This document shows positions 28,301 through 63,639 of a stretch of 64,000 bases of DNA, piece by piece. The stretch is from Camarhynchus parvulus (taxonomy: Eukaryota; Chordata; Aves; Passeriformes; Thraupidae), in the NCBI RefSeq assembly GCF_901933205.1, contig NW_022148248.1:186001-250000 (forward strand), given 5' to 3'. The notes below the pieces were generated by a model. That model was not told the DNA's origin. It saw only the letters and a program-made list of their open reading frames with translations, and made no database searches. Each line of letters begins with the position of its first letter. The stretch's first letter is position 1. Made by a program: the position numbers and the translations under genes.

Positions 28301-31300
28301 CCACGCCAGTCTCACCATCCAGGTCCATCACCTCCCTCATGGCGCTGACCACGGGGTTGGGTCTCAGCACCAGGCACAGCACGGCTGGGGTGGGAGGAGA
28401 AGACATCAGAGACCACCCTTGGATGCCCCAGCTGGACCCCAGAGGTCCAGGGGAGGTCCCACAAGGGGTCCAGGAGGATCTGGGGGGGCTTTTGGAGGGT
28501 CACCCACAGGTGTTGTGCTGGCACTGGCCCTGGCCGGCCTCCGCCTCCCGCAGGTTCTCCACCATCTCCTTCGTGGTCTCCTGGAACTTCTCGGTGGTGT
28601 TGCTGCTCTGGGCCATGGTGAAGAACACCTGGTGTCCCACCACGATGCTGCCGGACCTTCAGGGAGGGGACACAGGAGGTCACAAGGGGGGGGTCTGGGG
28701 ACATCCCACCCCACCCCAGCTTTGGGGGTGGTCAGGGACCTCCTTACTTGAGGCTGGTGATCTCCACGCCCTCGTAGCCAGGGATGGTCCCATAGATCTT
28801 CTTGATCTGCAAGGACAGAAGGTCACCTTGGTGGTCACCTCCGTGGTCACCTTGGTGGCCGTGGTGGGACACTGTGGTCGCGCCACGTCCTCACCTCCTG
28901 CCGGAAGTGGTTCTGGAAGGAGAGGAAGGTCTCGGAGTCGGGGTCCTTCAGGTCCTCGGAGTAGTTGAAGTTGGTGAGGGTCACCTCCATGTCCACGGCG
29001 GCCATGATGGTCCCAGGGAACGCTGGAGGAGCAATGGGGTTGGTGGGGTAGGATGGGGGGGTGAGGACCTCCAGGGTGTCCAGGACCACCCCACCAAGGA
29101 AACCAGGAACCCCAAAGTGACCAGGACCTCCAAGATGTCCAGGAGCCCCAAAGTGACCAGGACCTCCATGATGTCCAGGACCACCAAGGAGACCAGGAAC
29201 CCCAAGGAGACCAGGACCTCCAAAGACACTAGAACCTCCAAGGTGCTGAGAACCCCATGAAGATCAGAACCCCAAAGAAGACCAAGACCCCCAAAACCAT
29301 CAAAACCCCCAAAAACCACCAGGACCCCCAAGAAGACCAGGACCCCCAAAGACACCAGGACCACCAAGAGGACCAGGACCACCAAGAGGACCAGGACCCC
29401 CAAAGACACCAGGACCACCAAAACCACCAGGACAACCAAGAGGACCAGGAACCCCAAAACCACCAGAACATCCAAGGTGCCCAAAACCCCCAAGAAGACC
29501 AAGACCCCCAAGATGCCCAGGAATCCCAAAACCACCAGGACCACCAAGAAGACCAAGACCCCAAAGACACCAGCACCACCGAGGTGCTGAGGATCCCCAA
29601 GAAGACCAGGAACCCCAAGATGCCCAGGTCCCCCAGGTGCGAGGTGGCCCCAGCACTCACGCAGGTTGGTGTCCACGGTGTCGGTGGAGAACTCGCAGCG
29701 TGGTCCGGCGTAGGACGGCGAGCAGAGACATCCGGTGCCACCGGGGGTCCCCCCGTTCTCACACAGCCCTGGTGGGACACGGGGACATCAGGGACAGCCC
29801 CGGGGACACCCCAGGAGAAGGTGGAGCTCACCTGGGGAGGACTCACCTGGTGGAGGTGGAACCGTGGTGGGGAAAGGGGTGGTGGAGATGGTGGGCGACG
29901 TGGAGGTCAGCAAGGTGGTTGCGGTGGTCCGTGAGGTCGTGGTGGGCTCTGGGAAGGTCGTGGAGGTCCCTGAGGAGGTCGTGGTGGTCTCTGGGGTGGT
30001 CGTGGTGGTCCTTGAGGTGGTCGTGGTGGTCTCTGGTGTGGTTGTGGAGGTCCCCGAGGTGGTTGGGGTGGTCTTAGGAGTGGTCGTGGTGGTCCCTGAC
30101 ATGGTTGTGGAGGTCCATGAGGTGGTCGTGGAAGACCCTGAGATGGTTGGGGTGGTCGCTGTGGTGGCTGTGGGTGTCCCTGTGGTGGTTGGGGTGGTCT
30201 TAGGGGTCGTCGTGGAGGTCTCTGATGTGGTCGTGGTGGTCCCTGAGGAGGTCGTGGTGGTCTCTGGGATGGACGTGGTGGTCACTGAGGTTGTGGAGGT
30301 CTCTGTGTTGGTCGTGGGTGTCTCCGAGGTGGTTGGGGTGGTCCCTGAGGTGCTCGTGGTGGAGCCTGAGAAGGTGGTGGTGGTCCCTGGGGTGGTCATC
30401 CCTGACATGGTCGTGGTGGTCCCTGAGGAGGAGGTGGTGGTCCCTGGGGTGGTCATGGAGCTCCCTGATGTGGTTGTGGAGGTCAGTGGGGTGGTCGTGG
30501 TGGTCTCTGAAGTCGTGGAGGTCCATGAGGTGGTTGGGGTCGTCTTATGAGTGGTCGTGGTGGAGCCTGAGGAGGTCGTGGAGGTCCCTGAGGTGATTGT
30601 GGAAGACCCTGAGATGGTTGGGGTGGTTGCTGTGGTGGTCGTGGGTGTTCCTGAGGTGGTCGTGGAGGTCATTGAGGTCGTGGGGGTCTCTGGTGTGGTG
30701 GTGGAGGTCCCTGACATGGTTGTGGTGGTTCCTGAGGTGGTGGTGGTCTTTGGGAAGATCGTGGTGGTCACTGAGGTCGTGGTGGTCTCTGATGTAGTCA
30801 TGACGGTCCCTGAAGTCGTGGAGCTCCATGAGGTGGTTGGGGTGGTCTTAGGAGTGGTCATGGTGGACCCTGAGGAGGTAGTGGAGGTCCCTGAAGTGGT
30901 CATGGTGGTCCATGACGTGGTCGGGGTGGTCTCTGATGTGGTCGGGGTGGTCACTGAGGTGGTGGAGGTCTCTGGGAAGGTCGTGGTGGTCACTGGGGTG
31001 GTCGTGGAGGTCCCCGAGGTGGTTGGAGTGGTCCATGACATGGTTGTGGTGGTCCCTGAGGTGATTGTGGAAGACCCTGAGATGGTTGGGGTGGTCGCTG
31101 GGGTGGTCCTAGGTGTTCCTGAGGTGGTCGTGGAGGTCATTGAGGTCATGGTGGTACCTGAGGTGGTCGTGGGGGTCTCTGGTGTGGTCGTGGAGGTCCC
31201 TGACACGGTTGTGGTGGTTCCTGAGGTGGTGGTGGTCTTTGGGAAGATCGTGGTGGTCACTGAGGTCGTGGGGGTCTCCGGTGTGGTCGTGGAGGACACT

Positions 31301-34300
31301 GAGGTGGTCGGGGTGGTCCCTGACATGGTTGTGGAGGTCCCTGAGGTGGTCATGGAAGACCCTGAGATGGTTGAGGTGGTCACTGAGGTGGTCGTGGGGG
31401 TCTCTGGTGGGGTCATGGGTGTCCCTGAGGTGGTTGGTGTCATCTCTGGGCTAGTCGGGGTGGTCCATGGGATGGTCGTGGTGGGCCCTGAGGTCGTGGA
31501 GGTCTCTGGGAAGGTGGTGGAGCTCGTGGAGGTCCCGGACATGGTTGTGGTGGACCCTGAGGTGGTTGTGGAGGACCCTGGGGTGGTTGTGGAGGTCACC
31601 GAGGTCATGGTGGTCACTGGTGTGGATGTGGGTGTCCCTGTGGTGGTGGTCGGAGGTCTCTGGGATGGTGGTGGTGGAGCCTGAGGAGGTTGGGGTGGTC
31701 TCTGGGGTGACCGTGGTGGTCTCTGAGGTCATGGAGGAACCTGGGGTGGTCGTGGTGGTCACTGGGGTGGTCGTGGAAGACCCTGAGGAGGTTGGGGTGG
31801 TCTCTGTGATGGTTGTGGAGGTCACTGAGGTCGTGGTGGTCACTGGTGTGGTTGTGGGTGTCCCTGAGGTGGTTGTGGAGGTCTCTGGGATGGTCGTGGT
31901 GGTCGCTGGAGTCGTGGAGGTCCCTGAGGTGGTTGGGGTGGTCTCTGTTGTGGTCGTGTGTGTCTCCGAGGTGGTCGTGGTGGTCCCTAGGGTGGTTGTG
32001 GAGGTCCCTGAGGTGGTTTGGGTGGTCTCTGTTGTGGTCGTGTGTGTCCCTGAGGAGGTTGGGGCGGTCTTAGGGGTGGCTGAGGTGGTCCATGAGGTCG
32101 TTGAGGTCCCAGATGTGGTCATGGTAGAGCCTGAGGAGGTCGTGGAGGTCCCTGGGGTGGTGGTGGAGCCAGAGGTGGTTGTGGAGGTCTCTGTGATGGT
32201 TGTGGAGGTCTCTGAGGTCGTGGAGGTCACTGGGGTGGTCGTGGAGGTCTCTGTGGTGCTCGGGATGGTCCCTGTGATGGTCGTGGAGCTCCCTGGGGTG
32301 GTTGTGGAGGTCACCGAGGTCATGGAGGTCTCTGAGATGGTCGTGGTGGTCACTGGTGTGGTTGTGGGTGTCCCTGAGGAGGTTGGGGTGGTCTCTGGGG
32401 CGACCGTGGTGGTCTCTGAGGTCGTGGAGGAACCTGTGGTGGTCGGGGTGGTCACTGGGGTGGATGTGGGTGTCCCTGGTGAGGTTGGGGAGGTCTCTGG
32501 GATGACCGTGGTGGTCTCTGAGGTTGTGGAGGTCCCTGAAGCGGTCGTGGAGGACGCTGTGGCGCTCGGGATGGTCCCTGTGATGGTGGTGGAGGTCTCT
32601 GAGGTGGTCGTGGTGGTTCCTGATGTGGTCCAGGTGGTCCATGAGGTGGTTGGGCTGGTCACTGGGGTGGTCGTGGAGCTCCCTGGGATGGTGGTGGTGG
32701 TCACAGGGGTGGTCGTGGGTGTCCCAGAGGTGGTTGTGGAAGACCCTGGGATGGTGGGAGTGGTCATTGTGGTGGTTATGGAGGTCACTGGGGTGGTTGG
32801 GGTGCTCTTAGGAGGGGTCGTGGTGGTCTCTGAGATGGTTGGGGTGGTCCCAGAGGTGGTTGTGGAAGACCCTGGGATGGTGGTGGACATCACCGAGGTC
32901 GTGGAGGTCTCTGAGGTTGTTGTGGTGGTCACTGGGGTGGTCATGGGTGTCCCTGAGGTGGTTGTGGAAGACCCTGAGGAGGTGGGAGTGGTCGCTGTGA
33001 TGGTTGTGGAGGTCACTGAGGTCGTGGAGGTCTCTGGGGTGACCGTGGTGGTCGCTGGGAGTCGTGGAGGTCTCTGCTGTGGTTTGGGAGGTCCCTGGGG
33101 TTGTCCTGCTGGTCCACTGAGGCGGTTGTGGTGGTCTTAGGGGTGGCTGTGGTGGTCCCTGGGGTGGTCGCCCCTGACATGGTCGTGGTGGTCCCTGAGG
33201 AAGAGGTGGTGGTCCCTGGGGTGGTCATGGATGTCCCTGACATGCTTGTGGAGGTCGGTGGGGTGGTTGTGGTGGTCTCTGGGATGGACGTGGTGGTCAC
33301 TGAGGTTGTGGAGGTCTCTGTGTTGGTCGTGGGTGTCTCCGAGGTGGTCGTGGTGGTCCCTGGGGTGGTTGTGGAGGTCCCTGAGGTGATTTGGGTGGTC
33401 TCTGTTGTGGTCGTGTGTGTCCCTGAGGAGGTTGGGGCGGTCTTAGGGGTGGCTGAGGTGGTCCATGAGGTCGTTGAGGTCCCAGATGTGGTCATGGTAG
33501 AGCCTGAGGAGGTCGTGGAGGTCCCTGGGGTGGTGGTGGAGCCAGAGGTGGTTGTGGAGGTCTCTGAGGTCGTGGAGGTCACTGGGGTGGTCGGCGTGGT
33601 TCCTGATGTGGTCGAGGTGGTCCAGGAGGTCATTGGGCTGGTCACTGGGGTGGTCGTGGTGGTCGGGATGGTCCCTGTGATGGTCGTGGAGCTCCCTGGG
33701 GTGGTCGTGGTGGTCTCTGATGTGGTCGTGGTGGTCCCTGAAGTCGTGGAGGTCCATGAGGTGGTCATGGTGGTGGTCCATGAGGTGGTTGGGAAGGTCC
33801 CTGAGGTGGTCGTGGAGGTCTCTGAGGAGGTCGGGGTGGTCTCGGATGTGGTCGGGGTGGTCACTGAGGTGGTGGAGGTCTCTGGGAAGGTCGCAGTGGA
33901 GGTTCCTGAGGAAGTGGTGGAGGTCACTGGTGTGGTTGTGGGTGTCCCTGAGGAGGTTGGGGTGGTCTCTGCTGGTGGTCTTGGGTGATGTGGTGGTGGG
34001 GTGGTACTGGGGTGGATGTGGGTGTCCCTGGTGTGGTTGTGGAGGTCTCTGGGATGACCGTGGTGGTCTCTGAGGTTGTGGAGGTCCCTGAAGCGGTCGT
34101 GGAGGACGCTGTGGCGCTCGGGATGGTCCCTGTGATGGTGGTGGAGGTCTCTGAGGTGGTCGTGGTGGTTCCTGATGTGGTCCAGGTGGTCCATGAGGTG
34201 GTTGGGCTGGTCACTGGGGTGGTCGTGGAGCTCCCTGGGATGGTGGTGGTGGTCACAGGGGTGGTCGTGGGTGTCCCAGAGGTGGTTGTGGAAGACCCTG

Positions 34301-37300
34301 GGATGGTGGGAGTGGTCATTGTGGTGGTTATGGAGGTCACTGGGGTGGTTGGGGTGCTCTTAGGAGGGGTCGTGGTGGTCTCTGAGATGGTTGGGGTGGT
34401 CCCAGAGGTGGTTGTGGAAGACCCTGGGATGGTGGTGGACATCACCGAGGTCGTGGAGGTCTCTGAGGTTGTTGTGGTGGTCACTGGGGTGGTCGTGGGT
34501 GTCCCTGAGGTGGTTGTGGAAGACCCTGAGGAGGTGGGAGTGGTCGTTGTGATGGTTGTGGAGGTCACTGAGGTCGTGGAGGTCTCTGGGGTGACTGTGG
34601 TGGTCGCTGGAGTCGTGGAGGTCTCTGCTGTGGTCGTGGAGGTCCCTGGGGTTGTCCTGCTGGTCCACGAGGCGGTTGTGGTGGTCTTAGGGGTGGCTGT
34701 GGTGGTCCCTGAGGTGGTCGCCCCTGACATGGTCGTGGTGGTCCCTGAGGAAGAGGTGGTGGTCCCTGGGGTGGTCATGGATGTCCCTGACGTGCTTGTG
34801 GAGGTCGGTGGGGTGGTCGTGGTGGTCTCTGATGTGGTCGTGGTGGTCCCTGAGGAGGTCGTGGTGGTCTCTGGGATGGACGTGGTGGTCCCTGGGGTGG
34901 TTGTGGAGGTCCCTGAGGTGGTTTGGGTGGTCTTTGTTGTGGTCGTGTGTGTCCCTGAGGAGGTTGGGGCGGTCTTAGGGGTGGCTGAGGTGGTCCATGA
35001 GGTCGTTGAGGTCCCAGATGTGGTCATGGTAGAGCCTGAGGAGGTCGTGGAGGTCCCTGGGGCCGTGGTGGACCCTAAAGTGGTCGTGGAGCTCCCTGAC
35101 AGGGCTGTGGGGGAGCCAGAGGAGGTTGGGGTGGTCTCTGTGATGGTTGTGGAGGTCACCGAGGTCGTGGAAGTCTCTGAGGTTGTCGTGATGGTCACTG
35201 GTGTGGTCGTGGAGGTCTCTGGGATGGTCGTGGTGGAGCCTGAGGAGGTTGGGGTGGTCTCTGGGGTGACCGTGGTGGTCTCTGAGGTCGTGGAGGAACC
35301 TGGGGGGTGGTCGTGGGTGTCCCTGAGGTGGTTGAGGTGGTCTCTGGGATGGTCGTGGTGGTCGCTGGTGTGGCTGTGGGTGTCCCTGAGGTGGTCAGTG
35401 TGGTCCCTGTGATGGTGGTGGAGGTCTCTGTGTTGGTCATGGTGGTTCCTGAGGAGGTCGTGGAGGTCTCTGTGGTGCTCAGGATGGTCCCTGTGATGGT
35501 TGTAGAGGTCACTAGGGTGGTCGTGGAGGTCTCTGGGATGGTCGTGGAGGACCCTGAGGAGGTTGGGGTGGTCCCTGTGGGAGTCGTGGAGGAATCTGTG
35601 GTGGTCAGGGTGGTCCCTGATGTGATCGTGGAGAGTTCTGTGGTGGTTGGGGTGGGCCCTGAGGTGGTTGTGGAGGTCTTAGGGGTGGTCGTGGAGGTCC
35701 CTGGGCTGGTGGTCGTGGTCCCTGAGGAGGTGGTGGTGGTGCCTAAGGTGGTCGTGGAGGTCACTGGGGTGGTCGTGGAAGACCCTGAGGTGGTTGAGGT
35801 GGTCTCTGGGGTGACCGTGGTGGTCACTGGAGTCATGGAGGTCCCTGAAGTGGTTGTGGAGGACGCTGTGGTGGTCACGGTGGTCCCTGTGATGGTGGTG
35901 GAGCTCCCTGGGATGGTGGTGGAGGTCACCGAGGTCGTGGAGGTCTCTGAGATGGTCGTGGTGGTCACTGGTGTGGTTGTGAGTGTCCCTGAGGTGGTTG
36001 AGGTGGTCTCTGGGGTGACCGTGGTGGTCTCTGAGGTCGTGGAGGAACCTGTGGTGGTCGTGGTGGTCACTGGGGTGGTCGTGGTGGTCACTGGGGTGGT
36101 CGTGGAAGACCCTGAGGAGGTGGGAGTGGTCGTTGTGGTGGTTGTGGAGGTCACTGAGGTCGTGGGTGTCCCTGAGGTGGTTGAGGTGGTCTCTGGGGTG
36201 ACCGTGGTGGTCTCTGGAGCTGTGGAAGTCCCTGCGGTGGTTGTGGAGGTCTCTGGGATGGTGGTCGTGGTCCCTGAGGAGGTGGTGGTGGCCCCTAAAG
36301 TGGTTGTGGAGGTCACTGGGGTGGTCGTGGTGGTCTCTGTGGTGCTCGGGATGGTCCCTGTGATGGTCGTGGTGGTCACTGGGATGGTTGTGGAGGTCAC
36401 CAAGGTTGTGGAGGTCTCTGGGATGGTCGTGGAGGTCACCAAGGTTGTGGAGGTCTCTGAGGTGGTCATGGAAGACCCTGAGGAGGTTGGGGTGGTCCCT
36501 GAGGTCGTGGAGGAACCTGAGGTGGTCAGGGTGGTCTCTGTGTTGATCGTGGTTGTTCCTGATGTGGTCATGGAGGGCCCTGAGGTGGTCGTGGAGCTCC
36601 CTGGGATGGTTGTGGTGGTCTCTGAGATGGTCATGGTGGTCACTGGGGCGGTCGTGGAGGTCTCTGGGGTGGTTGTGGTGGTTCCTGAGGAGGTCGTGGA
36701 GGTCTCTGTGGTGCTCGGGATGGTCCCTGTGATGGTCGTGGAGCTCCCTGGGGTGGTGGTGGAGGTCACCGAGGTCGTGGAGGTCTCTGAGATGGTCGTG
36801 GTGGTCACTGGTGTGGTTGTGGGTGTCCCTGAGGTGGTTGAGGAGGTCTCTGGGGTGACCGTGGTGGTCGCTGGAGTCGTGGAGGTCCCTGAAGTGGTCG
36901 TGGAGGACGCTGTGGTGGTCGTGGTGGTCCCTGTGATGGTCGAGGAGCTCCCTGGGATGGTTGTGGTGGTCTTAGGGGTGGTCGTGGAAGACCCTGAGGA
37001 GGTTGGGGTGGTCCCTGAGGTGGTCATGGAGGAACCTGTCGTGGTCGTGGTGGTCACTGGTGTGGTTGTGGAGATTTCTGTGGTGGTTGGGGTGGGCCCT
37101 GAGGTGGTTGTGAAGGTCACTGGGATGGTCGTGGAGGTCACCGAGGTCGTGGAGGTCCCTGAGGTTGTTGAGGTTGTCCCTGTGGTGGTCGTGGAGGAAC
37201 CTGTGGTGGTCGTGGTGGTCTCTGTGATGGTGGTGGAGGTCTCTGGGGTGGTGGTCGTGGTCCCTGAGGAGGTGGTGGTGGTCTCTGAGGTGGTTGTGGT

Positions 37301-39773
37301 GGTCTCTGTGTTGGTCATGGTGGTTCCTGAGGAGGTCGTGGAGGTCTCTGTTGTGCTTGGGGTGGTCCCTGTGGTGGTCGTGAAGGTCTCTGGGACAGTT
37401 GTGGTGGTCACTGGTGTGGTCGTGGTGGCCTCTGGGATGGTCGTGGGTGTCCCTGAGGTGCTGGTGGAGGAACCTGTGGTGCTTGGGGTGGTCACTGTGG
37501 CAATCGTGGAGGTCCCTATGGTGGTCAGGGTGGCCTCTGAGGAGGTTGGTGTCATCTCTGAGGTGGTCGTGGTGGTCCCTGAGGTGGTTGTGGAGGTCTC
37601 TGAGGAGGTTGGTGTCATCTCTGGGGCAGTTGTGGAGGTCTCTGTGATGGTCGTGGTCCCTGAGGAGGTGGTGGTGGTCCCTAAGGTGGTTGTGGAGGTC
37701 ACTGGGGTGGTCGTGGTGGTCTCTCTGTTGGTCATGGTGGTTCCTGAGGAGGTCGTGGGGGTCTCTGTGGTGGTCGTGGTGCTTCCTGATGTGGCTGAGG
37801 TGGTCCATGAGGTGCTCATGGAGGTGCTTGAGGTGCTCAGGGTGGTCCCTGTGGTGGGTGGAGTGGTCTCTGAGGTGCTCATGGAGGTCCCTATGGTGCT
37901 CAGGGTGGTCTCTGAGGAGCTTGGTGTCATCTCTGGGGTGGTCGTGGTGATCACTGAGGTGGTTGTGGAGGTCTCTGAGGAGGTTGGTGTCATCTCTGGG
38001 GCGGTTGTGGAGAACCCTGTGATGTTCGTGGTGGTCCCTGTGGTGCTCGGGGTGGTCTCTGAGGAGGTCGTGGAGGTCTCTGAGGTGCCCAGAGTGGTCC
38101 CAGTGATGTCCGTGGTGTCCCTGGAGCTCCCCTGGGCTCTGGTTGTCCCCAGGACGGCGGCTGCAGGGGAAGGTCCAGGGTGAGCAGAGACCCCGACCTT
38201 CCTCCTCCTCCTCCTCCTCCTCCTCCTCCTGCCCTTTGACCCACCCAATGTCCCCCAATCTCCTCCATCCTCCTTCATCTTCACCCTCCTCTTCCTCCTC
38301 CTCCTTCTCCAAGACCTTCATCCAAGGTTTCTTCTTCTCCCTGTCCAACCTCCTCCATCATCCTCACCTTCCTCCTCCTCCTCCTCCTGCCCTTTGACCC
38401 ACCCAATGTCCCCCCATCTCCTCCACCGTCCTTCATCCTCCTCCTCCTCCTCTTCCAAGACCTCCCTCTTCTGTTGATGCCCTTCATCCTCCCCCTGCTC
38501 TTCTTCACCTTCCTCCTCATCTCCTCCACCTTCCTTCATCCTCCTCTTCCTCTCTCCCTCATCCCACCCTCAGCACTGACCAACCCGACCTCACCTCGTT
38601 GTCTCCACCTTCCTCCTCCTCCTCCTCCTCCCCTTCCTCCCCCTCTGGCCTCTCCCCACCGTCTCCACCTTTCACCTCTTCCTCTTCCTCCTCATCATCC
38701 TCTTCCTCCTCATCCTCTTCCTCCTCCACGACCTTCAGATCTGAATCCGTCAAACCTCTCCCACCCCAACAATTCCTCCTGCTCTTCATCATCACCCTCC
38801 TCTTCTTCACCCTCCTCTTCCTCCTCCAAGCCCTTCAGACCGCGGACCCCTCCCAACCCCAACTCCTCCTCTTCCTCTTCTTCATCCCCTTCATCTTCCT
38901 CCTCCTCCTCCCCCAGGACCTTCAGATCTGAACCCCTCAAACCTCTCCCACCCCAATTCCTCCTCCTCTTCTTCATCTTCCTTTTCTTCACCCTCCTCCT
39001 CCTCTTCTTCATCTTCATCCTCCTCTTCCTTTCCTTCATCCTCCTCCTCCTCTTCTTCACCCTCTTCCTCCAAGACCCTCATCCCCCTGTCCCCTCCAAC
39101 CTGTCCCCACCATCCTCTTCCTCCTCTTCTTCACCCTCTTCATCCTCCTCCTCCTCTTCTTCATCCTCCTCTTCCTCCAGGACCTTCAGATCTGAACCCC
39201 TCAAACCTCTCCCACCCCAATTCCTCCTCCTCCTCTTCATCCTCTTCTTCTCCATCTCCCTTTTCTTCACCCTCCTCTTCTTCATCCTCCTCCTCCTCCC
39301 CCGATATCCCCCTGTCCCCTCCCATCTTCACCTGTGATGGGGCAGGTGAGGGACACCAGGTGAGGGCCACCAGGTGACCATCACCAGCTGATCATCACCA
39401 GGTGACCATCACCAGGTGACCACAACCAGGTGACCACAACCAGGTGACCATCACGAGGTGACCACCACCAAGATCCTCCCAGTGTCCCCCTGTCCATCCT
39501 CACCTGTGATGGTGCAGGTGACCACCACCAGGTGACCACCACCAGGTGACCACCACCAGGACTGTCCCAATGTCCCCTCCTCATGTCCCCCTGTCCCCTC
39601 CCAATGTCCCCCTGTCCCCCTGTCCATCCTCACGTGGACCACCACCAGGTGACCATCACCAGGTGACCACCACCAGGACCCTCCCAATGTCCCCTCCCGG
39701 TGTCCCCCCGTCCATCCTCACCTGTGATGGCGCAGGTCAGGGCCACCAGGACCGTCCCTCGTGTCCCCCCCAT
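24795..39773 (-). CDS. Membrane mucin C (MUC3/12/17 type)
   Basis: Complete gene for a large type I membrane mucin. Exons right to left: signal 39722-39773; PTS 29847-38160; EGF 29661-29768; SEA 28895-29022, 28748-28806 and 28508-28656; linker 28316-28384; EGF 27864-28026; transmembrane 26330-26489; tail 25312-25536; last exon about 24795-24833. SEA has GSIVV followed by GHQVFF. Phases are consistent except for one extra base near 26,480 and one C-run break near 25,430, plus several breaks in the PTS repeat (near 35,300, 34,000, 33,110 and 31,660). The gene is divergent from ACHE, the order I recall at human 7q22 between ACHE and MUC3A, which makes mucin C the positional counterpart of MUC3A. 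Sequence alone does not prove one-to-one orthology. Confidence 0.85.
25312..25536 (-). CDS. Mucin C cytoplasmic tail exon
   Basis: Begins SDLPPYFGGSWYELDDFSWP and ends SPAFRPSLERVDPFLQ, which resembles the MUC17/MUC3 tail segment with the F-x-P-[ST]-L motif. The two halves are in different frames; the break lies in a long C run near 25,430. The donor gtatgt is in phase 0 and the following short exon reads LRTPRPRVTPDL then stop. Confidence 0.65.
25560..26320. repeat. Minisatellite in mucin C tail intron
   Basis: Units of aaactgggagacccctcccc fill the intron between the tail and transmembrane exons. Non-coding. Confidence 0.9.
26330..26489 (-). CDS. Mucin C transmembrane exon, one-base frame break
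   Basis: Frame after the break reads DQELYWYTGSQCSGRVSK, then GTGLGVAVALLFLTCVILI and CRRRRRCRR. The exon is 160 nt where phase needs 159; the extra base lies in the CTGCCCCGGACC start. Span, stop-transfer arginines and exon position match mucin B. Confidence 0.75.
26550..27720. repeat. 20-bp minisatellite in mucin C intron
   Basis: More than 50 copies of gggaccccatggtggacatt. Because 20 is not a multiple of three, every frame reads the same 20-residue peptide; these open frames are not genes. Confidence 0.95.
27864..28384 (-). CDS. Mucin C linker and second EGF-like exon
   Basis: Exon 28316-28384 reads VLCLVLRPNPVVSAMREVMD. Exon 27864-28026 reads ELCHQRAPAGYGDFFWAVVT and ends CHHGRCQVTRQGPQC. 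The lengths, 69 and 163 nt, equal those of the matching exons in mucins B (69) and A (163). The intron between holds a 20-base ggtccatggggtggtcagga repeat (28,090-28,310). Confidence 0.82.
28508..29768 (-). CDS. Mucin C EGF-like module and SEA domain
   Basis: Exon 29661-29768 reads LCENGGTPGGTGCLCSPSYA (EGF-like). SEA exons 28895-29022, 28748-28806 and 28508-28656 read MEVTLTNFNYSEDLKD, IKKIYGTIPGYEGVEITSL and SGSIVVGHQVFFTMAQSSN. GSIVV is an accepted SEA cleavage variant. Intron 29023-29660 is a pentamer-to-decamer accaggacccccaa repeat. Confidence 0.85.
29847..38160 (-). CDS. Mucin C PTS-rich exon
   Basis: About 8.3 kb of Thr/Ser/Pro repeat, units of the type TTTPVTSTTTSGTSTTSETT. The acceptor is cttcccctgcag at 38,161; the donor gtgagt is at 29,841-29,846. 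Two long near-identical segments of more than 1 kb recur (about 32,020-33,140 and 33,400-34,720), indicating recent internal duplication. Frame breaks near 35,300 (GGGGGG run), 34,000, 33,110 and 31,660 split it into five open segments. Confidence 0.82.
38180..39310. repeat. 1.1-kb polypyrimidine tract in mucin C intron 1
   Basis: Nearly unbroken TCC/TTC repeats on the plus strand, hence polypurine in the transcript. Frames rich in Ser/Pro/Leu here are not genes. Several longer copies (accttcagatctgaacccct) occur near 38,730, 38,920 and 39,180. Confidence 0.9.
39330..39720. repeat. Array with copied exon-1 donor of mucin C
   Basis: accaccaggtgaccatcacc units enclose two extra copies of the exon 1 end and donor (cacctgtgatggngcaggt near 39,331 and 39,510) besides the true one near 39,720. 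Confidence 0.7.
39722..39773 (-). CDS. Mucin C exon 1, signal peptide
   Basis: Reads MGGTRGTVLVALTCAIT with a gtgagg donor in phase 1; the PTS exon joins as AAVLGTTRAQG. The start has a good context (gcc before ATGG). The exon end and donor are copied twice downstream in the intron. Confidence 0.75.
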
Positions 39774-42394: not shown

Positions 42395-47039
<4,645 letters not shown>

Positions 47040-52882: not shown

Positions 52883-55386
52883 TCAGCGCACCATGTACTC
52901 CTTGCGCTTGTTGAGGCGGGTCTGGCAGAGGGAGAAGCCGCCCAGCAGCGCGTAGAGCCCCGCGGCGATGAAGCAATTGTAGCTGACCTGCTCGTACAGG
53001 CGGTAAATGCGTTCGGGGCCGCTGCGAAAAGGGGAAATTTCCAAATTTTTTTGGGGTGGAAAAAGGGGATTTTGGGGTTTTTTTTGGGAGGTTTGAGGGG
53101 GAGGGATTTTGGAGGATTTGGGGATTTTTGGGGGGTTAGAGTTTTAGGATCCTCCTTAAAAATCCATAAATTCCTCCTAAAGTCTTTCCCAAAATCCTCA
53201 AAATTCCCCCCAAAATCTTTCCCAAAATTCCTTCAAAAATTCCCAAATCCTCAAAACCCCCCTCAAATTCCCTCAGGACCCTCCAAGACCCCCCAGATCC
53301 CCTTCAAATCCTCCCAGGACCCCTCAATTCCCAAAATTCCCCCCCCCCCAGATGCCCTCAAATTCCCACCAGGATCCCCCAAATCTGCCCAATTTCCACC
53401 CAGGACTCCCCAAATTCCCCAAAATCCCTCCCGGGATCCCCCAAATCCCCCTCAGGACCCCTTTAAATACCCCCAGGAGCCCCCAAACTTCCCCAAATCC
53501 CCTTAAATTCCCCTCAAATCCCCCCCAGGACCCCCCAAATTCCCCCCAGGACCCCCCAAATCTCCTCAAATCCCCCCCAGGACCCCCCAAATTCCCCCCG
53601 GGACCCCCCAAATCCAATCCCCCCTCACCCATTGAAGTCCTCCTCGGTGAAGGGCACGTCCTCGATCAGCACGGCCGAGTGCACGTTGAAAAAAATGCCC
53701 AGCAACACCTTGGGGGGGAGAATTTGGGGGGTCCCGAGGGGATTTTGGGGGGTCCCGAGGGGATTTGAGGGGAGTTTGGGGGGGTTTGAGGGTCCCTGAG
53801 GGGATTTTGGGGGCTCCTGAGGGATCCTTGGGGAGATTTGGGGGATTTTGGGGGGTCCTGAGGGGATTTGGGGGGGAGTTTTGAGGGTCTTGGGGGAATT
53901 TAGGGGCAAGCTGGGGGTTCTGGGGGTCTCTCAGGGGGAATTTGAGGGGATTTTGGGGGGCTTGGGGGGGATTTGGGGAGGTTTTGGGGGATCCTGAGAG
54001 GATTTGGGGGGAGTTTGGGGGGTCGTGAGGGTTCCTTGGGGAGGTTTGGGGGGGATTTTGGGGGGGTCCTGGGGAAATTTGGGGGTCCTGGGGGTCCCTT
54101 TGGAGGATTTTGGGGGGGTCCCGAGGGGATTTAAGGGGAGTTTGGGGGTCCTGGGGGTTCCTTGAAAGAATTTTGGGAGAATTTCGGGATCCTGAGGGTC
54201 CCTATGTGAGAATTGAGGAGGTTTGGGGGTCCTTGGGATGGATTTGGGGTGTCCTGAAGGGATTTGGAGGAAATTTGGTGGTCCTGGGGGGTCCTCAGGG
54301 GGATTTTGGGGGTCCTGGGGTTTTTTTGGGGTGCTCTGAGCTGCCCCCCCCCCCCCAAAAAAAAGTGGTTTTTGGGAGTGGGGGAGGGGCCGGGGGTGAC
54401 TCAGGGGCAGCTGAGGGGAAGTTGGGGGGTGGGGGAGGGGTTTGGGGTTTTTTTGGGGGTGGGGGTTGGGGGTGTCCCCCACATTTCGGAAAGTTTGAAG
54501 CCCCCTCCCCCAAATATTCCTCACCCCCCCCCAGGACCCCCAAATTGCCCCCAAACCCCTCCAAGACTTCCCCCAAATTCCTTCTCAGTTCCACAAGGAT
54601 CCCCCAAAATCCCTCAGAACTCCCCCAAATTCCCTCCAAGTGTCCTCAAAACCCTTCCAGGACCCTCCAAAACGCCTCAAATCCCCCCCAAAACGCCTCA
54701 GAACGCCACAAAATCCCCTCAGAATCCCCTCCGGACAACCCCATGACCCATCCAAAACCCCCCAGAATCCCCCAAATTCCTTCCAAAGCCCTCAAATCGC
54801 CCCAAATCCCTCAGAATCCCCCTAAAACCCCTGCCAACCCCTCAGGATCCCTCCAAAACTCCTCCTAGACACCTAAAATCCCTCAGAATTCCCCCAAAAT
54901 CCCCCCCAGAACCCCCCTCAAACCCCCACCAACCCCTCAGAAACCTCCAAATCCCTCCGAGATCCCCCCAAAACCCCTCCTAGACCCCCAAAATCCCTCA
55001 GAATTCCCACAAAACCCCTCCAAATCCGTCCAAAATCCCCTTTTAACCCTTCAGAACCTCTTCAAACCCCTCAGCACCCCCCAAAATCCCTCCCGCCCCT
55101 TAAGGCCCCTCAGAATCCCCCCACAAAATCCTTCAAATCCCCCCAAAACCCCTTCAAACCCCCACGACTCCTCCAAACCCTTTAAATCCCCCACCAAAAT
55201 CGCCTTTTAACCCTTCAGAATGTGTTCAAACCCCTCAGAACCCCCCAAAATCCCTCCCGCCCCTCACGCCCCCCCCCCATCCCCTCACGGCCCCTCAGGG
55301 CCCCTCACCAACATCACGACGCCCCAGGCGCTGAGGACGAGCCCGCACGCGGCCATTTTGGGCCCGCAGCAGAGCAGCGACACCAT
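52883..55386 (-). CDS. RNASEK: Ribonuclease kappa
   Basis: A 98-residue two-span membrane protein; in animals it associates with the V-ATPase and is needed for endocytic uptake. Exons right to left: 55309-55386 ([20 protein letters not shown]), 53629-53708 ([20 protein letters not shown]) and 52883-53021 ([20 protein letters not shown] to [10 protein letters not shown], stop). Length and sequence fit the human protein closely, including SLLCCGPK and the KRKEYMVR end. Phases 0 and 2 are continuous and there is no frame break. RNASEK lies directly upstream of BAP18 on the same strand, as on human 17p13.1, and is divergent from the glucose transporter gene. Confidence 0.97.
53150..54475. repeat. 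Inverted degenerate arms around RNASEK exon 2
   Basis: Left arm (53,150-53,625) has ccccaggaccccccaaattc units; right arm (53,710-54,475) has gggggatttggggggtcctg units, the reverse complement. Exon 53629-53708 lies at the switch. From 54,480 to 55,300 the sequence turns C-rich again; no exon was seen there. Confidence 0.85.
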
Positions 55387-56764: not shown

Positions 56765-58500
56765 CCTTAATTAATGACCCCCGCCTGACCTTAATTAACG
56801 CTTGCGTAGCGCTAATTAACTGTTTATTGGCGCTAATGAACGTCTTGATCCCTTCCACGGGACTCCCCGAGCCTTAATTAACCCTTAATTAATCCTTAAT
56901 TAACTGCCTGACCCCCTCCGGGCACTCCCCGGGCCTTAATTAACCCTTAATTAATCCTTAATTAACTGCCTGACCCCCTCCGGACACTCCCCGGGCCTTA
57001 ATTAACCGTAATTAACGCTTGATTAGCGCTAATTAACTCTTAATTAGGATTAATTTGCCTTAATTAACCTCTTGGTCACCGCCACGGGACTCCGCGACTC
57101 TTAATTAACTCCTAATTAATCTTTAATTAACTCCCTGCCCCCTCCGGACACTCCCTGAGCCTTAATTAACCACTAATTAACTCTAATTAGCATTAATTTG
57201 CCTTAATTAACCTCTTGGTCACCCCCACGGGACTCCCCGCCCCTTAATTAACCCTTAATTAATCCTTAATTAACTCCCTGCCCTTTCTCCGGGATATCCC
57301 CCAGCCTTAATTACCCCTCATTTACCACTAATTACCCCTAATTAACGTTAATTACCCCCGATTCACCCCAAAGGACCCCCCTCAACCCCTAATTAACCCT
57401 AATTAACCTTAATTAACCTCCGGATTTCCCCAGCGGGTTTCCCCCTCCCGACCCCTAAATAACCCTTAATTAACTCCCCGACCTTAATTAACCCCTAATT
57501 AACCCGTAATTAACTCCTAATTAACCCCCTGCCACTCCTTGGTGTCCCTTAATTATCCACTAATTACCCCTAATTAACCCTTAATTAATCCACCCCCCCC
57601 TCCCAGCAACCCCCGTGGGAGCCCCTCATTAACTCCCCCCCTTAATTAATTTACTAATTAGCTAATTAATTCATTAATTAATTACCGCCCCCATGCCCAG
57701 AGGGTTCCAGCAGATCCAGGAGGAGGAGGAGGTACGGGGGGGTTAATTAGGGGTTAATTACGGGTAATTAGAGGTTAATTAGGGGTTAATTAGAGGTCGG
57801 GCAGTCCCGGGTTGGGTCAGGGGCTTAATTAAGGATTAATTAGCGGTTAATTAGGGGTTTGGGTGTTATGGGGGGGATCGAGAGGTTAATTAGGGGTTAA
57901 TTAACGTTCATTAGAGATCAGTGAGTCCCGGAGAGCGGTTAAGGGTTAATTAAGGATTAATTAAGGAATTATTTGAGGTTAATTAAGGGCTCGGGGAGGG
58001 GCGAACTGGAGCATAATTAGGGGTTAATTAGGGCTAATTAAGACTTAATTAGGAGTGGCGGAGTCCTGAGGTGGATCGGGGATTCATTAAGCATCAATTA
58101 GGGGTTATTAAGGGTTGATTAGGGGTCGGGGAGGGGGTCCTGTGGGGGCGGTTAATTCGGGGCTAGTTAGAAGTTAATGGAGTGTTAATTAGCGATTATT
58201 AGGGATTAATTAGGGGATTATTAGGGATTAATTAGGGGTTAATTAAGGGTCGGGAGGGTCCTGTGGGGGCGGTTAATTCGGGGCTAATTAGAAGTTAACG
58301 AAGTGTTAATTAGCGGTTAATTAGGGATTAATTAGAGGATTAATTAAGGGTCGGGGAGGGGTCCTGTGAGGGGGGGGGGTCAAGCCATTAATTAGAGCCA
58401 CATTAGAAGTTAATTAAGGGTTAATTAGAGGTTAATTAGGGATTAATTAGGGGATGATTGGGCACCAATTAGGCGTTAATTAAGCGTTAATTAGGGGGAG
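56765..58500. repeat. TTAATTAA-rich inverted arrays around SLC2A4 exon 1
   Basis: Left arm (56,765-57,690) is ccttaattaacccttaatta type; right arm (57,735-58,500) is ggggttaattaggggttaat type, the reverse complement. The palindrome TTAATTAA and half sites TAATTA recur dozens of times. Exon 57693-57731 lies at the switch. Confidence 0.95.
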
Positions 58501-61500
58501 ATTTTCGCCCCTATCGCGACGGGGGGGGGAGGGGCGGATGTCGCGACAGAGCCGCGGGAGGTGGGGGAGGGGCCGCGGGGGGCGGGGCGGGGGTGTGCGG
58601 GGGGTGGGGGAGGGGCGGGGCGCTTTGGCCACGCCCCCTCCGCAAATCCGACCCTGCCCCTCCCCCATCCCAGGACCTCCCCCAATTCCCCCTCCCCATT
58701 TTCCCCCAAACTCCCGGGTTTTTGGGGGGAATTTTGGGGAATTTTTGGGATTTTTGGGGCGAATTTTTGGGATTTCGGGGGCATTTTGGGGGAGATTTTT
58801 GGGGTGGATTTGGGGATTTTGGGATCTATTCTGGGGAGATTTTTGGGGATATTTTCTTGGATTTCTGAGGGGATTTTTGGGTCAATTTTTTGGGGTGGAT
58901 TCGGGGATTTTGGGATCTATTATCGGGAGATTTTTGAGGGATTTTGGGGAATTTTTTGGGGAGATTTTGGGGGCATTTTAGTGATGGATTTGGGGGTCAC
59001 TTTTGGGGGAGTTTTCTTGGATTTTTGGGGAATTTTTGGGGGGATTTTTGGGGTGGAATCGGGGATTTTGGGATCTATTCTGGGGAGATTTTTGGGGGTA
59101 TTTTCTTGGATTTTTGGGGATTTTTGGGGTAGATTTGGGGATTTCAGCGTCATTTTTGGGGGTATTTTCTTGGACTTTTGTGGGGATTTTGGGAGGGGAA
59201 TTAGGGGAGTTTTGGGGGGGGAAATTTGGAGAGATTTTTCGGAGGAATTTTTTGGGGATTTTGGGGTCAATTTCGGGCGATTCCGGGGATTTTTCAGGGA
59301 CCTTTTAAGGTGGATTTTTGCTGTTTCGGTGTCATTTTTTGGGGGGGGGTTTTGGGGGTTTTTGGTGTGATTTTTTTTTGGGAGGGGTCTCTAACCTCCC
59401 CCCCCCAGGAGGATGAGGGGGGTCCCGGCTCGTTCCCCGGGCGGGGGTCGCCGCCCCCCTCCCCCCCCCCGGCCTCGCTGACCCCCGCCCTGGCCCTGAC
59501 GGTGTTCGCGGCCTCGCTGAGCTCGCTCGGCTTCGGCTTCAACATCGGCGTCATCAACGCCCCCCAGAAGGTCGGAGACCCCTCCCCAAATTCCACGGAC
59601 CCCTCCCCTCATTCTCCAGACCCTCCCCTGGAAGACCCCTCCCCAAATTGGGGGTGATATCTCCCCCAAATTCTGCAGACCCCTCCCCAAATTCGGCAGA
59701 GAGCCCGCCCCAAATTGGGGTAAACCCCTCCGGGACCCCTCCCCAAATTCCGGAGAGCCCTCCCCAAATTCTCCAGATCCCCCTGGAAGACCCCTCCCCA
59801 AATTGGGGTGATCACCTCTGGGACCCTCCCCCCAAATTGGGGTAACACCCCCCCGCAGACCCCGCCCCTAATTGGGGAAGACCCATCCCCTAATTACTCA
59901 GACCCCGCCCCTAATTCCACAGACCCCCTCCCCAAATTGGGGGAGACCCCTCCCCTAATTCTCCGGATCCCCCTGGAAGACCCCTCCCCAAATTTGGCAG
60001 AATCCCCCCCTGGGAGAGCCTTCCCCAAATTGAGGTTAACTCCCTTCGGAGACCCCTCCCCAAATTCCACAGACCCCTCCCCTAATTACCCAGACCCCTC
60101 CTCCAGAGACCCCTCCCCAAATTGGGGTAACACCCCCCCGGAGACCCCGCCCCTAATTGGGAGACCCCTCCCCAAATTGTGGAGACCCCCTCCCGGAGAC
60201 CCCTCCTCAAATTGGGGAGACCCCGCCTCTCATTCTGGAGACTCCGCCCCTAATTCCACAGACCCCCTCCCCAAATTGGGGTAACTCCTCCCGGAGACCC
60301 CTCCTCAAATTCCACAGACGCCCCCCCCCATGGATCCCCCTCCCCAAATTGGGGTTCTCCCTCAATGAATTGCTGCCCCCTCCCCAAATTCGGCTGCCCC
60401 CTCCCATGGGTCCCGCCCCCGGGTACCCCCACCCCAAATTGGGGTTCTCTCCCCACAAATTTGGAGCCCCCTCCCCAAATTGGGGTGTCCCCCTCTCCAG
60501 TGGAGCCCCCTCCCCAAATTGGGGTGTCCCCCTTTCCAGTGGAGCCCCCTCCCCAAATTGGGGTTCTCCCCCCCAAACTGGGGTGTCCCCCTCCCCAGGT
60601 GATCGAGGTTGAGTACAGCGCCACCTGGGCCCGGCGCTGGGGGTCGCCGCCCCCTCCCCAAATTCGCGTTCCCCCTCAATGAATGGCTGCTCCCCCTCCC
60701 CACAGGTGCCCCCTCCCGAAAATCAGGGTCCCCCTCCCCAAAGTGGGCTCCCCCCTCCCCAAATTCGGGCGCCCCACCCATAAATGGGTCCCTAGGGTGG
60801 GGCTCCCGTTGCTAAAATTGGGAGCCCCCTCCCCAAATTGGGGTGTCCCCCTCTCCAGAGGAGCCTCCTCCCCAAATTGGGGTGACCCCGCCCCAGGAGT
60901 GCCCCCTCCCCAAACTGGGGTTCTCCCCCCCAGATTGGGGTGCCCCCTCCCCACATTGGGAGCCCCCTCCCCAGGAGTGCCCCCGCCCCACATTGGGGTG
61001 CCCCCTCCCCAAATTGGGGTGCCCCCTCCGCAGGTGATCGAGGTGGAGTACAACGCCACCTGGGCCCGGCGCTGGGGGTCGCCGCCCCCTCCCCAAACTC
61101 TCTCGCTGCTCTGGGCGCTCTCGGTCGCCATTTTCTCCGTGGGGGGGATGGGCACGGCCCTGGCGGGCGGGGCCATGGCCGAGCGCCTCGGCAGGTGAGG
61201 GGCGGGGCCTAAGGGGGGGCGGGGCTTGAGGGGGAGGGGCGTGAACGGGAGGGGAATTGAGGGCGGGGCTTGGAGGGAAGGTGTGGGCGGGGATTGGAGG
61301 GGAGGGGTTTAAAGGGTGTGGGCGGGGCTTAATTTGGTGTGGTGGAGTGGGCGGGGCTTGAAGGGAAGGTGGGTTGAGGGCGGGGCTTAAAGGGGAGGGG
61401 CAGAGGGGGCGGGGCTTAATGGGAGGGGGGTTGAGGGTGGGGATTGGAAGGGGAGGGGTTAACGGGGTGGAGGTGGGGCTTAGTGAGGTGTGGCAGAGTG

Positions 61501-63639
61501 GGCGGGGCTTCCGGAGGAAGGGCTTTAAGGGCGGGGCTTAATGAGGAGTGGTGGGTGTGGGAATTGGAAGGGGAGGGGTTAAAGGAGTGGGGGTGGGGCT
61601 TGATGGGGTGTGGCAGAGTGGGTGGGGCTTGCTTAGGGAGGAAAGGGATTTAGGGCGGAGCTTAAATGGGAGGTGGTTCGAGGGCGGGGTTTGGAGGGAA
61701 AGAGGTTAAAGGGGTGAGGGCGGGGCTTAACGGGGTGTGGTCTAGTGAGCGGGGCTTGAAGGAGATTGGCGAAATGGGAGTGGTTTAATAATTGGGGGGG
61801 CCTAATGGCACAAATGGGCGGAGCTTCAGAGGCGTGGTCACCCCTCCCATGGCCACACCCCTCCCCTTCCCCTCTCCCCCAGGAAAGGCGCCCTATTGGC
61901 CACCAACGGCCTGGCCGTGGTGGGCGGGGCCCTGATGGGCGGGGCCAAACTGGGCCCCACCTACATCCTCATCATCATTGGCCGCTTCATCGTCGGCGCC
62001 TACTCAGGTACGGCCGCGCCTGGGGGCGTGGCCAGGCTGGGGGGGCGTGGTCTGACTCAGGGGGCGTGGTCTGACTCTACATGGACTCGGCCTGAGTGTT
62101 TAGTGGGCGTGTCTTGTTTTGTGTGGGCGTGTCCTGTCTCTATGTGGGCGTGGCCTGGTTGTTTAGGGCACGTTAATTTTGGGGATTTTTTGGGGCGATT
62201 TTTGGGGTGGATTTTGGGGGGATTTTGGAGGAATTTTTGAGGAATTTTGGGGGAGCTTTTTGGGGGGGATTTTGGGAAAATTTGGGGCAGATTTTTGGGG
62301 AGATTTTGGGGAAATTTTGGGCGGATTTTTGAGATTTTTGGGGGGCATTTTTGGGGTGATCTCGGGGAGGATCCCCACGGGCCGAAGGGCATGTCCTGTC
62401 TCTGTGTGGGCGTGTCCTCTCTCCGAGGGGGCGTGTCCCGGCTGACCACGCCCCTTTCAGGGCTGGTCTCGGTGCTGGTTCCTCTCTACGTGGGCGAGGT
62501 GGCGCCGCTGCGCCTGAGGGGGGCGCTGGGCACCCTGCACCAGCTCGGCATCGTCCTGGGCATCCTGGTGGCACAGGTGGGAAATTCGGGGTTCTACGAG
62601 GGAAATTTGGGGTCCCAGGTGGGGAATTTGGGGTTCTAAGAGGGAAATTTGTGGTCCCGGGGAGAAATTTAAGGTCCCAGGGGGGAAATTTGGGCTCCCA
62701 GGGGGAAATTCGGGGTCCCAGGGGGGAAATTTGGGGTCCCAGATGGGAAATTTGGGTTCCAGGGGGAAATTTGGGGTCCCAAGAAGGAAATTTGGGGTCC
62801 CAGGTGGGAAATTTGGGGGCCCGGGGGGAGATTTGCAGCCTGCGGGGAGTGGGAGGGGCTTCGGTGGGCGGGGCTTGGATGGGGAGGGGCCGTTGGGGGT
62901 TGTGGGGATGCTCCGCCCACTCTGGGGGCTTGGGTGGGCGTGGCTTTGGGGGCGGGGCTTAATTTGCGGGGGCCGTTGTGGGCGGGGCTTAATGAGGAGG
63001 GGTCATTGGCGGTCGGAGGTTGGGGGTCACGGGGATGCGGGTGGGCGGGGCCTGGATGGGTGGGCGTGGCTTTGGAGAGCGGGGCTTGGGTGGGGCGGTG
63101 CCATTGTGGGCGGAGCTTGAGTGGGAGGGGCCTTTGAGTGGGGACATTTTGGTGTCCTGGGGTGCAGGTGGGTGGGGCCTGTCTCGTGGGCGTGGCTTTA
63201 AGGGGCATGGCTTTAGGGGGCGCGGCTTTAAGGGGGCCTCATTGCATCTCGTGGGCGCATTTGGGGTCAGGGCTGCGGGGGTCCCGAGGAGATTTTGGGG
63301 CGCTCGGGGGATGATTTGGGATCCCTGCAGCGACACCTCGCGACACACCCCTCCCCATGTCGCGATATACGCCAGTTCCATGGGCATATCGCCCCCTTCT
63401 GCCCGCCTATCCCGCGATACCCCGCGATATCCCGCGATATCCCGCGATATAAGTCGCGATATGGCGGCCTCTCCCGCAGGTGCTGGGGCTGCGGGCGCTG
63501 CTGGGGACGCCGAGGGCGTGGCCGGCGCTGCTGGGGGCGGGGCTGCTGCCGGCGGCGCTGCAGCTGCTGCTGCTGCCGCTGTGCCCCGAGAGCCCCCGGT
63601 TCCTGCTGGCGCGGGGCCAGCGCGGCCGCGCGCGCCGCG
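57693..63639 (+). CDS. SLC2A4: Insulin-responsive glucose transporter GLUT4, 5' part
   Basis: Facilitative hexose transporter of the major facilitator superfamily. Exons: 57693-57731 ([13 protein letters not shown]), 59409-59570, 61034-61194, 61883-62007, 62461-62576 and 63480-63639; phases 0, 0, 2, 1, 0, 1 agree at every join and no frame break occurs. The FQQI trafficking signal is specific to GLUT4 among class I carriers. Other hallmarks: [13 protein letters not shown] in helix 1, glycosylation sequon in [67 protein letters not shown] and [13 protein letters not shown] and [13 protein letters not shown] also favour GLUT4 over GLUT1. The donor after exon 2 (gtcgga) is weak. The remaining helices 7-12 lie beyond 64,000. 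Neighbours RNASEK and BAP18 are 17p13 genes, as is human SLC2A4. Confidence 0.9.
58680..59395. repeat. G/T-rich degenerate repeat in SLC2A4 intron 1
   Basis: Units like ttttggggagatttttgggg with three copies of a longer phrase ggattttgggatctattctg. Non-coding. Confidence 0.9.
59571..61030. repeat. cctccccaaattgggg array in SLC2A4 intron 2
   Basis: The whole intron is built of gacccctccccaaattgggg units. It contains the partial exon 3 copy at 60,599. The ggg and ccc halves make each unit weakly self-complementary. Confidence 0.95.
60585..60660 (+). pseudogene. Partial copy of SLC2A4 exon 3 with its acceptor
   Basis: After ctccccag at 60,598 it reads [20 protein letters not shown], then diverges into intron repeat. 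The true exon at 61034 reads [20 protein letters not shown]. The copy has lost the glycosylation Asn and all of the downstream helix, and has no donor. Confidence 0.85.
61195..61880. repeat. ggcggggctt array in SLC2A4 intron 3
   Basis: Units of gggcggggcttgaaggggag type. Similar sequence recurs in intron 5 at 62,850-63,250. No exon was seen. Confidence 0.85.
62165..62380. repeat. G/T-rich repeat in SLC2A4 intron 4
   Basis: Units like gattttgggggaattttt, the same family as intron 1. Non-coding. Confidence 0.8.
62577..62830. repeat. Minisatellite in SLC2A4 intron 5
   Basis: Units of ggtcccaggtgggaaatttg, about 20 bases, starting at the exon 5 donor (gtgggaaatt is itself the repeat core). Confidence 0.9.
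63330..63470. repeat. TCGCGATATC repeat before SLC2A4 exon 6
   Basis: Short tandem ccgcgatatcccgcgatatc with further tcgcgacacc and tcgcgatat copies, each centred on palindromic CGCG or GATATC. Related tcgcgac words occur at 58,515-58,550. Confidence 0.75.

What the first reader, a model, noticed from the sequence alone, without database searches (positions are those of the whole stretch)
57693..63639. A well-formed GLUT4 (SLC2A4) gene in what looks like a bird genome
The FQQI amino terminus, GLUT4-type residues and 17p13 neighbours identify SLC2A4, with six exons in perfect phase. GLUT4 has been widely reported as missing from birds, from searches of chicken and other assemblies. If the host is a bird, this is a gene hidden by extreme G+C and repeats, with consequences for how avian insulin-dependent glucose uptake is understood. 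I cannot tell whether later work has already reported it.
Basis: partly seen in the sequence, partly recalled or inferred. Interest (0 to 1): 0.9.

Follow-up and report, generated by a model that had tools for sequence, protein, structure and literature searches.

The report
Bird GLUT4 gene with stuttered introns
The window carries the first half of a real GLUT4 (insulin-type glucose transporter) gene of a bird that is not the chicken; bird GLUT4 was already reported for the chicken in 2021, so this is a further case, with repeat-filled introns that have copied pieces of its own exons.

Summary
Six SLC2A4 exons lie at the stated place, in one frame, with GT/AG splice sites. The window's own genome (1.05 Gb) supplies exons 7-11 downstream: 11 exons, C608:243693-256249. 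The protein is nearest to human GLUT4 (272 of 467 identical) and groups with it (SH 0.993, UFBoot 80); the same genome has GLUT1 and GLUT3 genes and at least part of GLUT2. It is not chicken: the published chicken GLUT4 peptide matches at 9 of 19 positions. The claim that birds lack GLUT4 was already overturned: Huttener 2021 cloned the chicken mRNA and detected the protein, and a 2026 paper places the gene on chicken chromosome 35. Added here: an 11-exon gene from another bird; copies of exon edges with their splice sites in introns 2, 7 and 10, matching published 'exon stuttering'; and a one-base frame disagreement in exon 11, before the GLUT4-like tail, of unknown origin. Of the neighbours, RNASEK and EIF5A fit human 17p13; ACHE does not.

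The parts
57693..57731 (+). SLC2A4 coding exon 1 ([13 protein letters not shown]), holds the FQQI motif
59409..59570 (+). SLC2A4 exon 2 (TM1), with an extra acidic and proline-rich stretch before TM1
61034..61194 (+). SLC2A4 exon 3 (NATW sequon in the first outer loop, TM2)
61883..62007 (+). SLC2A4 exon 4 (125 nt)
62461..62576 (+). SLC2A4 exon 5 (116 nt); the intron before it is absent from the same genome's GLUT1 and GLUT3 genes
63480..63639 (+). SLC2A4 exon 6 (CPESPR motif), 160 nt; exons 7-11 follow outside the window at C608:250356-256249
60599..60665 (+). partial copy of the 5' edge of exon 3 with its AG, in intron 2; 64 of 67 bases identical, 108 bits; no GT after it; read in phase it meets a stop after 27 codons
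57732..59408 (+). intron 1, 65% covered by tandem repeats (TTAATTAG-rich, then ATTTTTGGGG-like)
59571..61033 (+). intron 2, 92% covered by tandem repeats
52886..55386 (-). RNASEK, three matching stretches (55386-55306, 53708-53634, 53029-52886), neighbour on the other strand
43726..47036 (+). ACHE (acetylcholinesterase): matches within 43726-45319, at 46215-46469 (the end of this one runs into intron) and at 46923-47036, including the tetramerisation domain

Best explanation
This is the ordinary SLC2A4 gene of a bird other than the chicken. It encodes a class I facilitative glucose transporter, GLUT4, that most likely takes up glucose in muscle, as reported for chicken. Shown here: 11 exons, one open frame through exon 10 and TM12, conserved transport motifs, GLUT4 kinship, separate GLUT1-3 sequences elsewhere in the genome, feather keratin genes. 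Inferred: expression, intracellular retention and any insulin response. The locus behaves like a published avian dot-chromosome gene: high GC, fast protein divergence, introns filled by local repeats that have also copied exon edges.
For: Exons, frame and splice sites. Best PDB match GLUT4. Identity 272 of 467 to human GLUT4, 241 of 455 to GLUT1, 219 of 453 to GLUT3, 214 of 453 to GLUT2; of residues private to one human class I paralogue it shares 26 of 89 for GLUT4 against 6 of 62 (GLUT1), 10 of 101 (GLUT3), 18 of 139 (GLUT2); tree with human GLUT4, SH 0.993, UFBoot 80. Own GLUT1 (C21), GLUT3 (C1) and a GLUT2 part (C9, 161 residues) in the same genome. Intron between GAYS and GLVS absent from own GLUT1 and GLUT3. 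Feather keratin hits to 95%. Divergence from human 41.8% over aligned columns, 206 G/A/R/P residues in 484 without the tail, against 42% and 206 published for whole chicken GLUT4. EIF5A downstream.
Against: Bootstrap for the GLUT4 grouping is moderate (75% of 200, UFBoot 80) because the branch is long. The conserved tail (LL then TELQSLAAHEEP) lies one frame off the rest of exon 11. No RNA or protein data were available here.
Confidence: 0.92

Rival explanations
1. The gene is decaying or recently disabled in this bird: the exon 11 frame change is real and removes the dileucine and acidic tail, so the transporter would be mis-sorted or lost.
For: Exon 11 reads TM12 in one frame and the GLUT4-like end (ALLGPPEKDTELQSLAAHEEP, stop) in another; the first frame runs on without similarity.
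Against: Exons 1-10 are open with GT/AG splice sites. The disagreement falls within a C-rich stretch with several runs of four to six C, where base-count errors are common (inference). The tail is still recognisable, so the change would be very recent if real.
Confidence: 0.12
2. It is another class I transporter (GLUT1 or GLUT3), or a second copy of one.
For: Moderate bootstrap and a long branch.
Against: GLUT1 and GLUT3, and part of GLUT2, are found elsewhere in the same genome; GLUT4-private residues, FQQI start, extra intron and EIF5A neighbour.
Confidence: 0.02
3. The host is a non-avian reptile in which GLUT4 is long known.
For: AChE best matches a PDB chain, 4qww, that I recall as krait, which by itself says only reptile or bird.
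Confidence: 0.01

Closest known systems
Chicken GLUT4 (SLC2A4), Huttener et al. 2021, PMC8449477 (passages read)
   Same: FQQI start, N-glycosylation site, GARP enrichment, 42% divergence from human, GC-rich hidden locus
   Different: Different species: the printed chicken peptide (aa 262-280) matches at 9 of 19 positions here. Here the gene's introns and neighbours are seen too; the chicken full sequence, in a supplement, was not available to me
Avian dot-chromosome genes with sequence and exon stuttering, PMC12954441 (section 7 part 1 and passages read)
   Same: Introns 51-95% covered by tandem repeats; partial copies of the adjacent exon with its splice site, above their 42.1-bit cut-off
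   Different: Described there in chicken; here another bird, and 3 of 10 introns of one gene, against 190 of 5,572 dot introns in their screen. There repeat blocks were not seen to cross into exons; here TRF-38% of exons 4, 6 and 7 repetitive
Human GLUT4 (PDB 7wsm)
   Same: Fold family and motifs; exon layout as far as recalled
   Different: 272 of 467 residues identical; acidic and proline-rich insertion before TM1; altered tail

Membership tests
SLC2A class I (GLUT1-4) | Sugar_tr family fold and GLUT motifs (PESPR, QQLSGIN, GPGPxPWF, PETRGR; recalled) | tested here: met
   Pfam (exons 1-6); alignment
GLUT4 (SLC2A4) | Groups with GLUT4 in a class I tree | tested here: met
   SH 0.993, UFBoot 80, nine sequences; 75% of 200 bootstraps, N-terminal half, seven sequences
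GLUT4 (SLC2A4) | N-terminal FQQI motif | tested here: met
   MPRGFQQI, exon 1
GLUT4 (SLC2A4) | C-terminal dileucine and TELEY acidic motif | tested here: inconclusive
   LL and TELQ present but in a frame one base off the upstream exon
GLUT4 (SLC2A4) | Synteny with human 17p13.1 genes | tested here: met
   EIF5A downstream, RNASEK upstream; against: a YBX cold-shock domain and CLDN7 gave no match in C608:166001-280000, and ACHE is a 7q22 gene; map positions and these queries recalled
GLUT4 (SLC2A4) | Muscle and fat expression, insulin-driven translocation | not testable with these tools
   needs RNA and cell work
Exon stuttering | Copy of a lateral part of an exon with its splice site in the adjacent intron, over 42.1 bits | tested here: met
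   exon 3 108 bits, exon 11 83.3, exon 10 48.2, exon 7 46.4; best in 50 single-base shuffles of the ten introns 36.5; two distal exon 2 matches of 39.2 and 37.4 bits fall below the cut-off
Avian dot chromosome | Lies on one of the ten chicken-type dot chromosomes | not testable with these tools

The most novel reading that the evidence does not exclude
Stuttered exon edges in bird SLC2A4 act as decoy splice sites. Four copies keep the exact AG or GT of exons 3, 7, 10 and 11, and each, if used, runs into an in-frame stop. The number of copies may vary between individuals, as chicken stuttering introns do, so the repeat process would tune how much full-length GLUT4 a bird makes. It would also account for the 'complex alternative splicing' of chicken GLUT4 named in the title of a 2023 paper that I could not read.
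Probability: 0.2. Interest if true: 0.65.

Novelty: new member of a known kind. Interest (0 to 1): 0.42.

Why it matters
Papers still state that birds, or Neoaves, lack GLUT4: PMC10722388 (2023) says SLC2A4 is absent in Neoaves. An 11-exon gene in a second bird strengthens the 2021 finding and gives exon and intron sequence for testing expression. If the host proves to be a neoavian, it contradicts the 2023 statement directly; I could not settle that. The copied splice sites make a link between repeat instability and GLUT4 output testable.

Tried and rejected
Rejected: GLUT1, GLUT3 or GLUT2 identity; non-avian host; chicken as host. YBX2 and CLDN7 near the gene: no match to recalled queries, and no Pfam match in six frames of L009:6250-9900 (that call also missed the short first EIF5A stretch, so it is weak evidence). 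Exact forms of the avian CR1 3' octamer pair and the telomere repeat were not found in the window. Order of the bird: a growth-hormone search (two copies would mark a passerine) did not complete; the contig layout looks passerine to me by recall only, so I do not claim it. A second copy of exon 11: not completed. The exon 9 3'-edge match (23 of 24 bases, C608:252273) is left out of the stuttering count because it did not reach the 36-38 bits listed. A first full-length tree run hit the time limit with no output and was repeated with lighter settings. The first PF00083 search of the genome did not list this gene itself; only the best candidates were scored there.

Full report
They run from 57693 to 63639, with phases 0, 0, 2, 1, 0, 1, AG at all five acceptors, GT at all six donors, and 254 residues without a stop. 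The protein is a sugar transporter (Pfam) whose best solved match is human GLUT4 at 267.6 bits, then GLUT1 at 242.1.

The window is C608:186001-250000 of a genome of 1,051,565,912 bases. I fetched the next 30 kb and found exons 7-11 at C608:250356-250537, 251168-251272, 252051-252146, 254382-254585 and 256039-256249, with AG before each and GT after exons 7-10. The frame is open through exon 10 and through TM12 in exon 11. The end of exon 11 does not fit: the stretch that resembles the GLUT4 tail (a dileucine, then TELQSLAAHEEP and a stop) lies in another frame from TM12. Between them lies a C-rich stretch with several short C runs. Whether this is an assembly error or a real change is open.

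Identity. Over the gene up to PETRGRPF, 272 of 467 aligned residues equal human GLUT4, against 241 of 455 for GLUT1, 219 of 453 for GLUT3 and 214 of 453 for GLUT2. It shares 26 of 89 residues private to human GLUT4, against 6 of 62, 10 of 101 and 18 of 139 for GLUT1, GLUT3 and GLUT2. FastTree gives SH 0.993 and IQ-TREE UFBoot 80 for its grouping with human GLUT4 among nine sequences; the N-terminal half alone gave 75% of 200 bootstraps among seven. Support is moderate because its branch is long (0.95 against about 0.07 for the same bird's GLUT1). The same genome has GLUT1 on C21, GLUT3 on C1 and at least part of GLUT2 on C9. The intron between exons 4 and 5 is missing from that GLUT1 and GLUT3. 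GLUT3 (N-terminal half) was checked against PDB chains; GLUT1 and GLUT4 were compared by eye with the alignments; human GLUT5 was nearest to GLUT5 chains but not identical to the one shown; GLUT2 was not checked.

Host. It is not chicken: the 19-residue chicken GLUT4 peptide printed in PMC8449477 matches best at 9 of 19 positions, at residue 276, in the large inner loop where that paper puts it; the best ungapped match anywhere in human GLUT1-4 is 6 of 19. Divergence from human (41.8% of aligned columns) is close to the 42% that PMC8449477 gives for chicken, beyond its alligator (32%) and turtle (27%) values. The order of the bird remains unknown.

Neighbours. RNASEK lies upstream on the other strand in three stretches. 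EIF5A lies downstream, from C608:259901. In human both are on 17p13.1 (recalled). ACHE lies further upstream in the window, and beyond it are long tandem-repeat frames and EGF-like frames (one of two Pfam matches there is over its curated cut-off) that recall the mucins next to human ACHE on 7q22. So the neighbourhood joins two human regions.

Introns and exon copies. The ten introns are 51-95% tandem repeat by TRF; eight of the eleven exons are 0-3%, but exons 4, 6 and 7 are 28-38%. Blast of each exon against the gene and its surroundings (39 kb) found six further matches of 36 bits or more. Four exceed 42.1 bits, all in the intron next to the source exon: exon 3 5' edge in intron 2 (64 of 67 bases, 108 bits), exon 11 5' edge in intron 10 (50 of 53, 83.3), exon 10 3' edge in intron 10 (29 of 31, 48.2), exon 7 3' edge in intron 7 (28 of 30, 46.4). 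The other two, for exon 2, are of 39.2 and 37.4 bits and lie far downstream. In 50 single-base shuffles of the ten introns the best score was 36.5; such shuffles do not keep the repeats. All four copies keep the splice dinucleotide. This is the 'exon stuttering' that PMC12954441 defines in chicken, with its cut-off of 42.1 bits. That paper's main text names SLC2A4 once, for its place on chromosome 35; its list of stuttering genes is in a supplement that I could not open. EIF5A shows similar partial exon copies here.

What was known. Huttener 2021 (PMC8449477; passages) cloned full-length chicken GLUT4 mRNA, found it highest in skeletal muscle, and detected the protein by antibody and by peptides after immunoprecipitation. 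PMC12954441 (section 7 part 1 and passages) puts SLC2A4 on chicken chromosome 35. PMC6792250 (passages) notes that data on cDNA of SLC2A4, tied to an earlier set of 2,323 avian cDNA models, were not released by their authors, so others may have seen it in further birds. A 1999 paper on a GLUT4-like protein in avian muscle and a 2023 paper on alternative splicing of chicken GLUT4 are known to me only from their titles in a reference list. Against this, PMC10722388 (passages) states that SLC2A4 is absent in Neoaves, and a 2021 MBE title speaks of its loss (not held). My listings for avian GLUT4 showed no paper that, by title or the passages I read, gives a complete SLC2A4 gene of another bird, but they cover only open papers, no preprints or databases, and I opened few of them.

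Mechanism. The best reading is an ordinary working GLUT4: the transport motifs, the N-glycosylation sequon and the FQQI sorting motif are present. Retention and insulin response depend on the tail, whose frame is unsettled. Expression and function are inferred from the chicken work.

Noticed in passing
43726-47036: An ACHE gene with its tetramerisation exon lies between the mucin-like region and RNASEK, joining human 7q22 and 17p13 genes (recalled) in one bird locus.
   Followed up: partly
2100-10700 and 30000-38300: Two very long tandem-repeat blocks with long open frames, near EGF-like frames at 20.1-22.2 kb on the minus strand: likely membrane mucins like those near human ACHE, not tested further.
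   Followed up: no
L010 (C608:262660-262719, 265739-265813, 265928-265984): EIF5A downstream also has partial copies of its own exons in its introns.
   Followed up: partly
L009 6039-6249 (C608:256039-256249): Exon 11 reads TM12 and the GLUT4-like tail in two different frames.
   Followed up: partly
L009 2273 (C608:252273): A 24-base match to the 3' edge of exon 9 with one mismatch, in intron 9, below the blast scores listed.
   Followed up: no
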